In this document: positions 18,589 through 23,647 of the stretch, piece by piece | How positions within the stretch are numbered: position 1 is the first letter of the stretch | Layout: each line of letters starts with the position of its first letter | Source: an uncultured Ruminococcus sp. | GTDB lineage: Bacteria; Bacillota; Clostridia; Oscillospirales; Acutalibacteraceae | NCBI GenBank assembly: GCA_944415425.1 | Contig: CALYBP010000002.1 | Location: 1-64,000 of the forward strand | DNA: 64,000 nt | Reading direction: 5' to 3' | Position numbers and translations under genes: made by a program | The notes under the pieces: generated by a model | The model's database searches: none | What the model saw: the letters and a program-made list of their open reading frames with translations, nothing else | What the model was told of the DNA's origin: nothing

Positions 18589-20001
18589 ATGCTGTTTGAT
18601 AAGCTGAAAAACTACTGCAATAACGGCGTATATCCTTTTCATATGCCGGGACATAAGAGGGTACGCATTAATGGCGATACAATACTTCCGTATCAGATTG
18701 ACATAACCGAAATTGACGGATTTGATAATCTGCATAATGCGTCGGGATGCATCAGAGATATTGAAAAAAAGGCGGAAAAACTTTACTCGGTTAACCGTGC
18801 GTACTTGCTTGTTAACGGTGCTACTGGCGGAATACTGTCTTCGTTAAGGGCGTTGACACACTTCGGTGACGATGTTATAATTGCCCGAAACTGCCACAAG
18901 TCGGTGTATAACGCTGTCGAGCTGTGCGGACTTAACTGTAAGTACATAATGCCTGAATTTAATAAAAAATACGGTATTTTTACTTCTGTTTCTCCCGCCA
19001 AGCTTGAAAAGCTGTTAAACTCAAATCCGAACACAAAGCTTGTTGTTATCACATCTCCGACATATGAGGGGGTTGTATCTGACATCAATTCTATCTCTAA
19101 AATATGCCGAGAACATGGGGCTTTGCTTTTTGTAGATGAAGCTCACGGAGCGCATTTTCCTTTTGCTGATAAATTCCCACGTGAAGCTGTCGCCTGCGGA
19201 GCGGATGTTGCCGTTTTGAGCCTTCATAAGACATTGCCTTCTTTTACGCAGACAGCGCTTTTAATAACAAACGACCTTGATTTATCTGAAAGATTGCAGG
19301 AGAATCTCTCAATATTTCAAACAAGCAGTCCGTCTTATGTTTTGATGAGCAGCATAGATAATTGCCTTGATTACTTCTCAAAAAATAATGGGGAATTTTC
19401 TGAATACATAAAAAGACTTGATTCTTTCTATACATCAGTCGCATCGTTAAAAAATCTAACCGTACTTTATAATGACAAAGAATTTTTAAACTCATGTTAT
19501 GCGTTTGATATAGGTAAAATCGTAATTTCAACTTCTGATACAAATATCAGCGGAGTTGAGCTTGCCTCGATTTTAAGGGATAAATATAAAATCGAACTTG
19601 AGATGGCTTACACAAACTATGCCATTGCAATGACTTCCGTATGCGACAGCGACAAAGGATTTGAGCGGCTTTTTACTGCGTTACAAGAAATAGACAGCAA
19701 TATTATGAAAATATCTGAAAACAGCTCCCATAATAATTATTTCAGCGCACCGAGGCAATGCTTTAAAGCAAACTTAAAAAGTAATTATCGATCAGAAAAA
19801 GTTTTGCTTAAAGACGCAAAAGGGAAGGTGTCTGCGCAATATTTGTGGGCATATCCGCCCGGCATCCCCATTATCGTACCGGGGGAATATATATCAGACG
19901 ACATTATAAAGTTAATTGATAATATGAATGATAAAAAAATAAATATAGGTTCTGAAAATAATTTACCGCCTCAGTACATTTACATTGCCAAAACCGATTG
20001 A
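18589..20001 (+). CDS. Orn/Lys/Arg decarboxylase family protein (PLP, fold type I)
   Basis: 470 residues, matching the short Gram-positive class (YaaO/SpeA-like) that lacks the N-terminal wing domain. The N-terminal FHMPGHKR, the PLP-contact region NGATGGILSSLRAL, the cofactor Asp-x-x-His in VDEAHGAHFPF (Asp183, His186) and the Schiff-base lysine in SLHKTLPSFTQ (Lys214) are all present. The C-terminal domain with YPPGIPIIVPGE (about 420) is also typical. It would decarboxylate a basic amino acid to a polyamine precursor; which one is not clear from sequence. AGGAGG stands eight bases before the ATG. The SCIFF promoter overlaps its stop codon. Confidence 0.92.
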   Translation: MLFDKLKNYCNNGVYPFHMPGHKRVRINGDTILPYQIDITEIDGFDNLHNASGCIRDIEKKAEKLYSVNRAYLLVNGATGGILSSLRALTHFGDDVIIARNCHKSVYNAVELCGLNCKYIMPEFNKKYGIFTSVSPAKLEKLLNSNPNTKLVVITSPTYEGVVSDINSISKICREHGALLFVDEAHGAHFPFADKFPREAVACGADVAVLSLHKTLPSFTQTALLITNDLDLSERLQENLSIFQTSSPSYVLMSSIDNCLDYFSKNNGEFSEYIKRLDSFYTSVASLKNLTVLYNDKEFLNSCYAFDIGKIVISTSDTNISGVELASILRDKYKIELEMAYTNYAIAMTSVCDSDKGFERLFTALQEIDSNIMKISENSSHNNYFSAPRQCFKANLKSNYRSEKVLLKDAKGKVSAQYLWAYPPGIPIIVPGEYISDDIIKLIDNMNDKKINIGSENNLPPQYIYIAKTD

Positions 20002-20026
20002 CAAATATAACTGTATGTGGTAAGAT
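19998..20026 (+). promoter_or_regulatory. Promoter for the SCIFF precursor gene
   Basis: Consensus -35 TTGACA (19998-20003), 17-bp spacer, -10 TAAGAT (20021-20026). The -35 overlaps the stop codon of the decarboxylase gene. Confidence 0.78.
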
Positions 20027-20060
20027 TAATTTGTAAATTCTTACAAGGAGAACGATTGCT

Positions 20061-20213
20061 ATGAAAAGAATTAAAACTATTGAAACTCGTGATCTTAAAA
20101 AGAGCGTTAAGACAGGCGGCTGCGGCGAATGTCAGACTTCTTGCCAGTCAGCTTGCAAAACTTCATGCGGCGTTGCTAACCAGCAGTGCGAAAAATGCAT
20201 GAGCGAGGAATAA
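20061..20213 (+). CDS. scfA: SCIFF ranthipeptide precursor (six cysteines in forty-five family, here seven)
   Basis: A 50-residue peptide too short for ordinary gene calling. It begins MKRIKTIETRDLKKSVKTGG and continues with the family core CGECQTSCQSACKTSC and a further cysteine. Cysteines lie at 21, 24, 28, 32, 36, 43 and 46. SCIFF peptides are nearly universal in Clostridia and are ribosomally made and modified: the adjacent radical SAM enzyme forms thioether cross-links from Cys to a nearby residue. The last cysteine, in CEKC, is beyond the canonical six. AAGGAGAA stands before the ATG, and a promoter lies 35-63 bases upstream. The function of the mature peptide is unknown. Confidence 0.95.
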   Translation: MKRIKTIETRDLKKSVKTGGCGECQTSCQSACKTSCGVANQQCEKCMSEE

Positions 20214-20242
20214 TTTTAATTATATCAAATTAAGGATACAAC

Positions 20243-20270
20243 AGCCGTTTTACCTTGAGGTTTAACGGCT
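20243..20270 (+). terminator. Hairpin/attenuator between SCIFF and its maturase
   Basis: AGCCGTT (20243-20249) pairs with AACGGCT (20264-20270), extended inward by ACC/GGT past two mismatches, and is followed by TTCCTTTTG. It probably ends most transcripts after the small peptide gene and leaves less for the enzyme. Confidence 0.7.
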
Positions 20271-20295
20271 TTCCTTTTGTCAAAACGGAGATATT

Positions 20296-21672
20296 ATGAT
20301 ACATCAATATAAATTAAACGGGTATAACATTGTTCTTGATGTTTTCAGCGGAAGCGTTCATTGTGTGGATGACCTTGCGTATGATGTTATAGCATTATTT
20401 GAAAAATCCGACAGAGAAAATATTATTAATACGCTTCTTGAAAAATACGCAGATGATCCTGAAATCACGGAGCAGGAGATTAAAGACTGTATTGACGATG
20501 TAGAGGAGCTAAAACAACAAGGGAAGCTTTTTGCCGAAGATAAATATGCAGACCTTGCTTTTGACTTTAAAAAACGAAATACGGTCATTAAGGCGCTTTG
20601 TCTGCATGTTGCTCATACCTGCAATTTGAACTGCGAATACTGCTTTGCAAGCCAAGGTAAATATCACGGTGATAGAGCGTTAATGAGCTTTGAAACGGGC
20701 AAAAGAGCTATTGATTTTCTTATTGAAAATTCTGGCAGCAGAGTAAATCTTGAGGTTGACTTCTTCGGCGGAGAGCCTCTTATGAATTTTGATGTTGTAA
20801 AACAAATTGTCGCATACGCACGAAGCATAGAAAAAGAAAAAAATAAAAATTTCCGTTTTACTCTTACTACAAACGGAATGTTGGTTGACGATGATGTAAT
20901 AGAATTTGCAAATAAAGAATGTCACAATGTAGTTTTAAGCCTTGACGGCAGAAAAGAAATTCATGATAATCTGAGAAAAACTGTTAACGGAAAAGGCAGT
21001 TATGACATAATTGTTCCGAAATTTCAGGAATTTGTTAAAAAAAGAGGCAACAGGGGATACTATGTAAGGGGTACATATACTCACAACAATACGGATTTTA
21101 CAAACGACATTTTTCATATGGCTGATCTCGGATTTACAGAGCTTTCAATGGAACCTGTTGTGTGTGCACCTAATGACCCTTATGCGCTGACTTACGATGA
21201 TTTGCCTGTCCTTTTTGAGCAGTATGAGATTCTTGCAAAGGAAATGCTTAGGCGTGAAAAAGAGGGCAAACCTATTACTTTCTATCATTATATGATTGAT
21301 TTAACGGGTGGTCCATGCATTTACAAGCGCATTTCAGGCTGCGGTTCAGGTACGGAATATATGGCAGTTACGCCTTGGGGCGAGCTTTATCCGTGCCATC
21401 AGTTTGTCGGCGACCCAAAATACAGCCTCGGCAATATATTTGACGGAGTTACGAATACCGAGATACAAAATGAATTTAAGCTCTGCAATGCGTATGCAAG
21501 AGAGGATTGTAAAAACTGCTGGGCTAAGCTGTATTGCAGCGGCGGCTGTGCCGCAAACGCTTATCACGCAACAGGCTCAATAAGCGGTATATATAAATAC
21601 GGCTGTGAGCTGTTTAAAAAGAGAATGGAATGTGCAATTATGATGAAGGTTGCTCAGGCAGATTCTGAATAA
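20296..21672 (+). CDS. scfB: SCIFF radical SAM maturase (SPASM domain, thioether-forming)
   Basis: 458 residues. An N-terminal peptide-recognition region (about 1-85, starting IHQYKLNGYNIVLDVFSGSVH) is followed by the radical SAM core with CNLNCEYC (Cys109, 113, 116) and the SAM-binding FFGGEPLMNF. The C-terminal SPASM domain is cysteine-rich (ISGCGSG, LYPCHQ, CNAYAREDCKNCWAKLYCSGGCAANAY in pieces, then a late YGCELF), for two extra iron-sulfur clusters. This is the layout of the clostridial SCIFF maturase studied as CteB. It would bind the neighbouring leader peptide and cross-link its cysteines. The gene starts 25 bases after the attenuator-like hairpin. Confidence 0.96.
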   Translation: MIHQYKLNGYNIVLDVFSGSVHCVDDLAYDVIALFEKSDRENIINTLLEKYADDPEITEQEIKDCIDDVEELKQQGKLFAEDKYADLAFDFKKRNTVIKALCLHVAHTCNLNCEYCFASQGKYHGDRALMSFETGKRAIDFLIENSGSRVNLEVDFFGGEPLMNFDVVKQIVAYARSIEKEKNKNFRFTLTTNGMLVDDDVIEFANKECHNVVLSLDGRKEIHDNLRKTVNGKGSYDIIVPKFQEFVKKRGNRGYYVRGTYTHNNTDFTNDIFHMADLGFTELSMEPVVCAPNDPYALTYDDLPVLFEQYEILAKEMLRREKEGKPITFYHYMIDLTGGPCIYKRISGCGSGTEYMAVTPWGELYPCHQFVGDPKYSLGNIFDGVTNTEIQNEFKLCNAYAREDCKNCWAKLYCSGGCAANAYHATGSISGIYKYGCELFKKRMECAIMMKVAQADSE

Positions 21673-21690
21673 TTTTATATCAAAACAAAT

Positions 21691-21717
21691 GAGCCGGTGC
21701 TGAAATAAGCGTCGGCT
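21691..21717. terminator. Terminator between SCIFF maturase and feoB
   Basis: An 11-bp stem GAGCCGGTGCT / AGCGTCGGCTC with two G-U pairs and a five-base loop, eight bases from the feoB stop. It serves both converging genes. Confidence 0.75.
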
Positions 21718-21724
21718 CTGTCGT

Positions 21725-23647
21725 TTATATAAAGATTTTCATTATATTTGAAACTATAAAGCAAAGAATAATCCCCATTACGGTTGGCATAACAGCTGAA
21801 AATATGGTCCATTTTATGCTTGCGGTTTCTTTTTTTATAGTAAGGCATGAGGTAGAACACGGAAAATGCATTATACACATAATTATCATACATACCGCGG
21901 TAATGACGGTCCAGCCATTTGCCGAAAGTAATTCCAAAAGCTGCTCATAGCTTGAATATTCCATCATTGTTGTGCTCGACATATATGACATAATTATAAT
22001 GGGTACCACAATTTCATTTGCGGGGAAACCAAGAATAAACGCCATAACGATTACGCCGTCAAGTCCTATCATTCTGCCGAACGGGTCTAAAAAATTTGTA
22101 CAGTATGAAAGCACAGAACTGTCGCCGACATAAATGTTTGCCGTAAGCCATATTATTGCCCCTGCAGGAGCGGCAACAATGACCGCTCTGCCAAGCACAA
22201 ATATCGTTCTGTCAAGCAGTGAACGAATAACAGTTTTTAAAATCTGAGGTTTTCTGTAAGGGGGAAGCTCAAGCGCAAAACCCGACTTTTGACCTTTTAA
22301 TAATGTGACGGACAGCAATTTTGAAACACCGAGTGTAACAAGAACGCACCCCACAATAATGCATAAAAGAATTACAGCTACCTTAAATGACGCAATCAGA
22401 CCAAAAGCAGAACCAGCAAAAAACATCATAATAATTGCTATAAGAGTAGGAAATCTGCCGTTGCACGGCATAAAATTGTTTGTTACTACGGCAATTAATC
22501 GTTCGGACGGGCTTTCGATAATTCTGCAACCCGTAACCCCGCAGGCATTGCAGCCGATTCCCATAGCCATAGTAAGGCTCTGCTTACCGTGGGCGCCGCA
22601 TCTTGCAAAGAATTTATCGAGGTTAAACGCAATTCTCGGTAGATAGCCTGAATCTTCTATTAGAGAAAAAAGAGGAAAGAATATTGCCATAGGAGGGAGC
22701 ATTACGGACACTACCCAGGTAAGGGTGGTATAAACTCCGTCAATCAATATTCCCGTTAAAAAATGAGGCACGGCAATCATTTCAAAAAGTATATACAGTT
22801 CATCTTTTATATAATTAAATAATATACTCAGCCATTCGCTCGGATAATTGGCACCTACCGCTGTTATCCAAAATAACGCGGCAAAAAGTACGAGCATTAC
22901 GGGTATTCCGAGTGCTTTGGATGTAAGTATTTTATCCAACGAGCAGTTATCTCTTTTTTTGGGGTCTGTGTTGTAAGATACGGTTTTTTCGCAGATTTCC
23001 TTTGATTTTTTTGCAAGCATTTCCGAGTTAAGTTTATGCTTTTCTTTGTCAAGAACATCTATTCCCGTAAAATTTCTTTCAACTCTGAAGCACTTGGTTT
23101 CTCCTAAACAGATTTTTCCCAATACATTTTTCAATTCATTTATTCCACTTTTTTTAGTTGCACAGGTACATACAACCGGTATCCCTAAGTTTAGCGAAAG
23201 CTCATCGACATCAATATTTACACCGTTTTTTTCCGCTTCATCGCATAAATTCAAACATAATACAGCTTCTTTTTGCAAAGAAAGGACCTCAAGAACAAAC
23301 GATAAATTTCGCTCAATAATATTTGAATCAACAACAATAATTACGCAGTCAATTTTCTCTGTCGCAAGAAAATTTCTTGTAACTTCCTCTTCTTCGGAAA
23401 AATCATTCATGGAGTATGTTCCCGGAAGATCCGTAAACAAATAACACTTATCTTTAATTACTGCTTTGCCCGAAGAACATTCAACCGTCTTACCCGTCCA
23501 GTTGCCGGTATGCTGTTTCAATCCCGTAAGCGCGTTAAATATTGTACTTTTACCGACATTAGGGTTACCGGCAAGCGCAACTTTAAAATCGGCTGACTCT
23601 TGTACATTGACAGAACATGATGAACGAAATAAATCCCTTGCAAACAA
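21725..23647 (-). CDS. feoB: Ferrous iron transport protein B
   Basis: 640 residues. The N-terminal G domain has G1 GNPNVGKST, G3 DLPGTYSM and G4 NLCDEAE. It is followed by a long membrane part with conserved polar helices (PFLSLIEDSGYLPR-like region near 330 and the Cys-containing GIGCNACGVTGCRIIES near 370, which is in the gate region). This is the GTP-dependent Fe(II) importer. It is shorter than E. coli FeoB (about 770) because it lacks a long C-terminal extension, usual in Clostridia. The start is TTG 23647, eight bases after a perfect AGGAGG. feoA lies 16 bases upstream. Confidence 0.96.
   Translation of the reverse strand: MFARDLFRSSCSVNVQESADFKVALAGNPNVGKSTIFNALTGLKQHTGNWTGKTVECSSGKAVIKDKCYLFTDLPGTYSMNDFSEEEEVTRNFLATEKIDCVIIVVDSNIIERNLSFVLEVLSLQKEAVLCLNLCDEAEKNGVNIDVDELSLNLGIPVVCTCATKKSGINELKNVLGKICLGETKCFRVERNFTGIDVLDKEKHKLNSEMLAKKSKEICEKTVSYNTDPKKRDNCSLDKILTSKALGIPVMLVLFAALFWITAVGANYPSEWLSILFNYIKDELYILFEMIAVPHFLTGILIDGVYTTLTWVVSVMLPPMAIFFPLFSLIEDSGYLPRIAFNLDKFFARCGAHGKQSLTMAMGIGCNACGVTGCRIIESPSERLIAVVTNNFMPCNGRFPTLIAIIMMFFAGSAFGLIASFKVAVILLCIIVGCVLVTLGVSKLLSVTLLKGQKSGFALELPPYRKPQILKTVIRSLLDRTIFVLGRAVIVAAPAGAIIWLTANIYVGDSSVLSYCTNFLDPFGRMIGLDGVIVMAFILGFPANEIVVPIIIMSYMSSTTMMEYSSYEQLLELLSANGWTVITAVCMIIMCIMHFPCSTSCLTIKKETASIKWTIFSAVMPTVMGIILCFIVSNIMKIFI

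What the first reader, a model, noticed from the sequence alone, without database searches (positions are those of the whole stretch)
20061..20213. SCIFF peptide with a seventh cysteine
The family is named for six cysteines in forty-five residues. Here the usual six (21, 24, 28, 32, 36, 43) are joined by Cys46 in a C-terminal CEKC. An additional Cys could give a further thioether, a free thiol, or a metal site in the mature peptide. The peptide has its own consensus promoter and is separated from its maturase by a hairpin, so it should be made in excess over the enzyme.
Basis: partly seen in the sequence, partly recalled or inferred. Interest (0 to 1): 0.6.

Follow-up and report, generated by a model that had tools for sequence, protein, structure and literature searches.

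The report
SCIFF peptide with lineage-fixed seventh cysteine
A small sulfur-rich peptide that nearly all Clostridia make with a dedicated radical enzyme carries one extra cysteine here; it is kept throughout this bacterium's close relatives and has arisen several times, and the same peptides lack the amino acid first reported as the partner in the family's known cross-link.

Summary
Window 20061-20213 encodes a 50-aa SCIFF precursor (TIGR03973 and PF13165, about 85 bits) with Cys 21, 24, 28, 32, 36, 43 plus Cys46. The ScfB maturase follows (TIGR03974, 779 bits; 566 bits to CteB, 5WGG).

Among 363 distinct SCIFF peptides, Cys46 is not unique. It is fixed in the window's own clade (94 of 95; both Cys codons used; positions 47-50 variable), present in 96 of 130 genus loci, in about 7% of sampled relatives in the same family, and in 1 of 110 peptides sampled elsewhere in the class. 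It sits almost always at CxxC spacing from Cys43.

It is one of two alternative seventh-Cys sites. The other is leader Cys13, and no peptide has both. A small clade that lost the thioether donor Cys32 always carries one of the two.

These peptides also have Gly37, not Thr37, while Thr34 is nearly invariant. Cys46 has no conserved acceptor, so a disulfide or metal role with Cys43 is likelier than a new thioether.

The promoter and intercistronic hairpin are conserved.

Verdict: a new variant of a known kind, moderately interesting. The chemistry is untested.

The parts
19998..20026 (+). promoter-like site TTGACA-17-TAAGAT with TG before the -10; the -35 overlaps the stop codon of the upstream gene
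   Evidence: the same element recurs in almost all genus loci printed
20045..20050 (+). ribosome-binding site AAGGAG of the SCIFF gene
   Evidence: sequence
20061..20213 (+). scfA: SCIFF ranthipeptide precursor, 50 aa, seven Cys, Gly37
20061..20120 (+). leader, residues 1-20, ending GG; relatives carry an alternative extra Cys at residue 13
   Evidence: leader boundary is approximate, inferred from the CteA/CteB structure as described in PMC8326336
20154..20162 (+). residues 32-34 (Cys-Lys-Thr): presumed thioether donor Cys32 and acceptor Thr34
   Evidence: inferred by homology to CteA
20169..20171 (+). codon 37, Gly: the residue reported as thioether acceptor (Thr37) in Tte1186a and CteA in vitro is absent
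20187..20198 (+). residues 43-46, Cys-Glu-Lys-Cys: CxxC pair made by the seventh Cys (codon 46 = 20196-20198)
20243..20270 (+). intercistronic hairpin AGCCGTT...AACGGCT followed by TTCCTTTTGT; AAGGA (20232-20236) conserved upstream
   Evidence: terminator or attenuator role inferred
20296..21672 (+). scfB: SCIFF maturase, radical SAM/SPASM, with all conserved cluster Cys present
18589..20001 (+). Orn/Lys/Arg decarboxylase-like gene, the conserved upstream neighbour of many Gly37-type SCIFF loci (context only)

Best explanation
This is an ordinary scfA-scfB locus of a Gly37 subtype of SCIFF, in a lineage that has fixed an extra C-terminal cysteine. ScfB (identified by homology) makes at least one thioether from Cys32; since residue 37 is Gly here, the acceptor is most likely Thr34 (inferred). 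Cys46 is most likely not a thioether donor. It forms a CxxC pair with Cys43, matching the CxxC at Cys21/Cys24, and serves as a disulfide partner or metal ligand that brings the cysteines left over after thioether formation from five to six (inferred). Leader Cys13, found in other lineages instead of Cys46, probably supplies the same missing sulfur (inferred). A promoter of its own and an intercistronic hairpin make the peptide in excess over the maturase (inferred from conserved elements).
For: Family and maturase identity. Cys46 fixed in 94 of 95 clade members with synonymous codon turnover beside variable positions 47-50. Tail Cys lie at position 46 in 73 distinct peptides and at 45, 47 or 51 in one each. 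Cys46/47 and an N-side Cys never occur together in 394 rows (109 versus 76); dependence test p = 0.008, simulated null P = 0.035. The 8-member clade without Cys32 always has exactly one extra Cys, at 46 (5) or 13 (3). Thr34 in 359 of 363 peptides, Gly37 in 204, Thr37 in 149. No conserved acceptor for Cys46: positions 48-50 vary, and 31 of 95 peptides stop after residue 49, so a C-x3-D spacing is unavailable. The literature reports Cys32-Thr37 in vitro and Cys32-Thr34 on co-expression: PMC8326336, PMC8172795. Promoter and hairpin.
Against: No chemistry was measured. The six-Cys Gly37 peptides (84 distinct) manage without any extra Cys, so it is not required in general. After phylogenetic control, the link between Cys32 loss and an extra Cys is not significant (p = 0.07), nor is the link between non-Thr37 and an extra Cys (p = 0.07). 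Residue 37 changes only about five times on the tree, so its association with Cys46 rests on few events. The Cys32-less clade keeps Thr34, which suggests Thr34 is conserved for more than accepting Cys32.
Confidence: 0.5

Rival explanations
1. Cys46 gives a further radical-SAM-made thioether in the mature peptide.
For: ScfB acts on Cys residues of this peptide family, and the related maturase PapB makes six thioethers in one peptide (PMC8172795).
Against: No Thr, Asp, Glu or Asn is conserved at +2, +4 or +5 from Cys46; the tail is variable and often ends at residue 49. Only one thioether has been found in characterised six-Cys SCIFF peptides.
Confidence: 0.12
2. Cys46 is a free thiol that is kept because of ancestry or mild selection and has no structural partner.
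For: One clade member replaced it with Tyr (L211), and many related peptides lack it.
Against: 94 of 95 retention beside freely varying neighbours, repeated change at the same spacing, and exclusivity with leader Cys.
Confidence: 0.2
3. Cys46 and Cys13 act during maturation rather than in the product, for example as an auxiliary-cluster ligand that helps dock or release the peptide on ScfB.
For: In CteB an auxiliary [4Fe-4S] cluster has an open site, and Cys21 of a bound leader peptide lies near it (PMC8326336). Alternation between a leader and a tail Cys is easiest to explain if both meet the enzyme.
Against: ScfB cluster Cys are conserved in nearly all enzymes whether or not the peptide has the extra Cys; no enzyme change specific to Cys46 was sought rigorously.
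Confidence: 0.15

Closest known systems
SCIFF / six-cysteine ranthipeptide (TIGR03973, PF13165); CteA of Clostridium thermocellum, Tte1186a of Caldanaerobacter subterraneus
   Same: Leader before a core with six Cys at the family spacing, the CQxSCQSACKTSC and NQxC motifs, and the maturase gene directly downstream.
   Different: Seventh Cys at 46 as CEKC; Gly at 37 where the characterised peptides have Thr; TRDL leader.
ScfB / CteB (TIGR03974; PDB 5WGG, 5WHY)
   Same: Full-length match at 566 bits, with the radical SAM CxxxCxxC and SPASM Cys conserved.
   Different: Gly37-type enzymes differ consistently from Thr37-type ones, e.g. T108/N112 beside the radical SAM motif, Y330/Y332, and the C-terminal SPASM edge. 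This is essentially one split on the tree, so lineage may explain it.
Freyrasin PapA/PapB and NxxcA ranthipeptides
   Same: Cys-rich peptides with beta-carbon thioethers made by related enzymes.
   Different: C-x3-D or N-x2-C donor-acceptor spacing; the window has no C-x3-D at Cys46. N40-x2-C43 does fit the NxxC spacing in nearly all SCIFF peptides, but is untested.

Membership tests
SCIFF ranthipeptide precursor (TIGR03973 / PF13165) | model match over the curated cut-off | tested here: met
   85.1 bits against 50; 84.7 against 27
SCIFF ranthipeptide precursor (TIGR03973 / PF13165) | six core Cys at conserved spacing | tested here: met
   Cys 21, 24, 28, 32, 36, 43
SCIFF ranthipeptide precursor (TIGR03973 / PF13165) | adjacent TIGR03974 maturase | tested here: met
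   20296-21672, 779 bits against 425
SCIFF ranthipeptide precursor (TIGR03973 / PF13165) | Thr37 acceptor as in Tte1186a and CteA in vitro (a feature of the characterised members, not of the curated models) | tested here: not met
   Gly37. Not family-defining: 204 of 363 distinct peptides sampled have Gly here.
SCIFF ranthipeptide precursor (TIGR03973 / PF13165) | non-alpha-carbon thioether in the product | not testable with these tools
   needs expression and mass spectrometry
ScfB/CteB maturase | radical SAM CxxxCxxC and SPASM cluster Cys | tested here: met
   Cys 109, 113, 116, 341, 349, 367, 405, 408, 414, 418, 437, conserved in 97% or more of 394 enzymes

The most novel reading that the evidence does not exclude
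SCIFF peptides carry a movable seventh sulfur: a Cys from either the leader (13) or the tail (46) completes the same disulfide or metal site. That would mean the leader stays on the product in Cys13 lineages and that the peptide's job is redox or metal binding rather than being a cleaved signal. In one clade this site replaces the Cys32 thioether altogether.
Probability: 0.15. Interest if true: 0.7.

Novelty: new variant of a known kind. Interest (0 to 1): 0.42.

Why it matters
SCIFF is among the most widespread RiPP precursors in Clostridia, yet its product, acceptor residue and role are unsettled. Two published experiments disagree on the acceptor (Thr37 or Thr34). Natural Gly37 peptides such as this one show by sequence that Thr37 cannot be the acceptor in this subtype, and a single co-expression would show what is. 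Two alternative seventh-Cys sites, and a clade without the donor Cys32, give natural variants for testing which sulfurs matter.

Tried and rejected
Rfam search of 19900-21800 found no known RNA family for the hairpin. PDB sequence search with the peptide gave only a chance hit, epoxyqueuosine reductase at E 0.038. Independent-pair tests on the ScfB tree had too few informative pairs. A first dependence test had badly converged rates and was replaced. Association of Cys46 with non-Thr37 looks strong by counting (74 distinct peptides with Cys at 46 or 47 are all Gly37 or Ser37, none Thr37), but the broader association of any extra Cys with non-Thr37 is not significant once phylogeny is modelled. 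The original SCIFF, CteB and thermocellin papers are not held, so their results are cited through reviews. The lower hairpin stem is invariant, so it gives no covariation evidence either way. No structure prediction was run: a 50-aa Cys-rich peptide would not give a trustworthy model, and ScfB already has a solved homologue.

Full report
What is there. The ORF at 20061-20213 encodes a 50-residue SCIFF precursor with Cys at 21, 24, 28, 32, 36, 43 and 46. It matches TIGR03973 and PF13165 well above cut-off. Both matches stop short of residue 46, so automatic annotation does not flag the seventh Cys. Downstream lies ScfB (20296-21672; TIGR03974 779 bits), a full-length homologue of CteB (5WGG, 566 bits) with all cluster cysteines.

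How common the extra Cys is. I collected SCIFF loci from sets that mostly hold one genome per species: 131 of 161 genomes of the window's genus hold a SCIFF, 144 of 200 in the family sample, and 328 of 391 in a class sample. A further 80 named loci came from a protein search chosen for likeness to the window peptide, so that set is biased towards it. I read peptides from 433 loci, 363 of them distinct. The directly asked share is: Cys at 46 or 47 in 96 of 130 genus loci, 8 of 109 family loci outside the genus, and 1 of 114 loci in the class set. In the ScfB clade that holds the window, 94 of 95 keep it (one Cys to Tyr), with TGC 81 and TGT 13, beside freely varying positions 47-50. It is thus a selected, lineage-level trait, neither unique to this genome nor universal.

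Two alternative sites. Other lineages carry an extra Cys in the leader, mostly at residue 13 (NLCES). No peptide with Cys at 46 or 47 also has an N-side Cys (109 versus 76 among 394 rows); the two peptides with Cys on both sides have the tail Cys at 45 or 51. Shared ancestry can produce such a pattern without any coupling. Modelled on the ScfB tree, independence is rejected only nominally (likelihood ratio 13.9, p = 0.008; simulated null P = 0.035). Parsimony needs about 11 changes for Cys46 and 16 for N-side Cys. It does not separate gains from losses.

Loss of Cys32. An eight-member clade has Ser at 32 and Ser or Ala at 37. All eight have exactly one extra Cys, five at 46 and three at 13, so the total stays six. 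Their ScfB keep the radical SAM motif. This suggests the extra sulfur matters when Cys32 is gone, but it is one clade and the tree-aware test gives only p = 0.07. Two further, degenerate peptides elsewhere in the family (L315, L317) also lack Cys32; one of them has no extra Cys.

Residue 37. The reviews report Cys32-Thr37 for Tte1186a and CteA in vitro, and Cys32-Thr34, through the gamma carbon, for CteA on co-expression (PMC8326336, PMC8172795). In the window residue 37 is Gly, which has no side chain to accept a beta or gamma thioether. Over 363 distinct peptides, residue 37 is Gly in 204, Thr in 149, Ser in 7 and Ala in 2, while Thr34 is present in 359; the four Thr34 exceptions all have Thr37. 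For the Gly37 subtype Thr37 is excluded and Thr34 is the best candidate. The Cys32-less clade still keeps Thr34, so Thr34 conservation alone is not proof. Gly37 and Thr37 peptides sit beside distinguishable ScfB lineages with consistent differences next to the radical SAM motif and in the SPASM region. Because this is essentially one split, these are leads and not tests.

What Cys46 does. Known donor-acceptor spacings give no conserved acceptor for Cys46: positions 48-50 vary and 31 of 95 peptides end at residue 49. The constant feature is the CxxC spacing to Cys43. I therefore favour a disulfide or metal role over a further thioether. This step is inference.

Regulation. The promoter-like site 19998-20026 and the intercistronic hairpin 20243-20270 recur through the genus with the same layout. 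The hairpin tail TTCCTTTTGT resembles a weak intrinsic terminator, so excess peptide over enzyme is likely but unmeasured. No Rfam family matches.

Context. An Orn/Lys/Arg decarboxylase-like gene lies just upstream. It is found near SCIFF in 29 of 29 genus loci tested and in many other Gly37 loci, but in none of 114 Thr37 loci. Flanks were 1.5-3 kb and the longer ones belong mostly to Gly37 loci, so the contrast is partly a matter of reach. Disruption of the SCIFF precursor and maturase in C. beijerinckii lowered sporulation gene expression and raised agr (PMC8102284). Nothing here tests function in this organism.

Limits. Genus and family are group codes without names; related contigs are titled uncultured Ruminococcus sp. 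and the like, from rumen and gut. The tree is a FastTree of one protein. No chemistry was done.

Noticed in passing
L373 (genome G360): One ORF holds two complete SCIFF units in tandem (12 core Cys, both Gly37), each with its own leader: a two-peptide precursor.
   Followed up: partly
L054 and L271 (genome G242): A genome with two SCIFF genes; the Thr37 peptide of L054 sits beside a maturase that falls in the Gly37/Cys13 part of the tree, a possible natural enzyme-peptide swap (or an assembly problem).
   Followed up: partly
genus loci, e.g. L001, L160, L209, L232: Species of one genus carry scfAB pairs from several separate parts of the ScfB tree, hinting at transfer or replacement of the cassette; 13 of 81 good genus genomes have no SCIFF hit.
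   Followed up: no
window 20178-20189 and nearly all SCIFF loci: Asn40-x2-Cys43 is almost invariant and has the spacing of the Asn-Cys thioether of NxxcA; I found no test of a second thioether there in the papers I could read.
   Followed up: no
window 20232-20280: The intercistronic hairpin keeps an identical lower stem (GCCGTT/AACGGC) and AAGGA/TTCCTT flanks across diverged species, more sequence conservation than a plain terminator needs.
   Followed up: partly
window 18589-20001: Short Orn/Lys/Arg decarboxylase-like gene conserved next to many Gly37-type SCIFF genes but not found next to Thr37-type ones, whose upstream neighbour is often a small membrane protein.
   Followed up: partly
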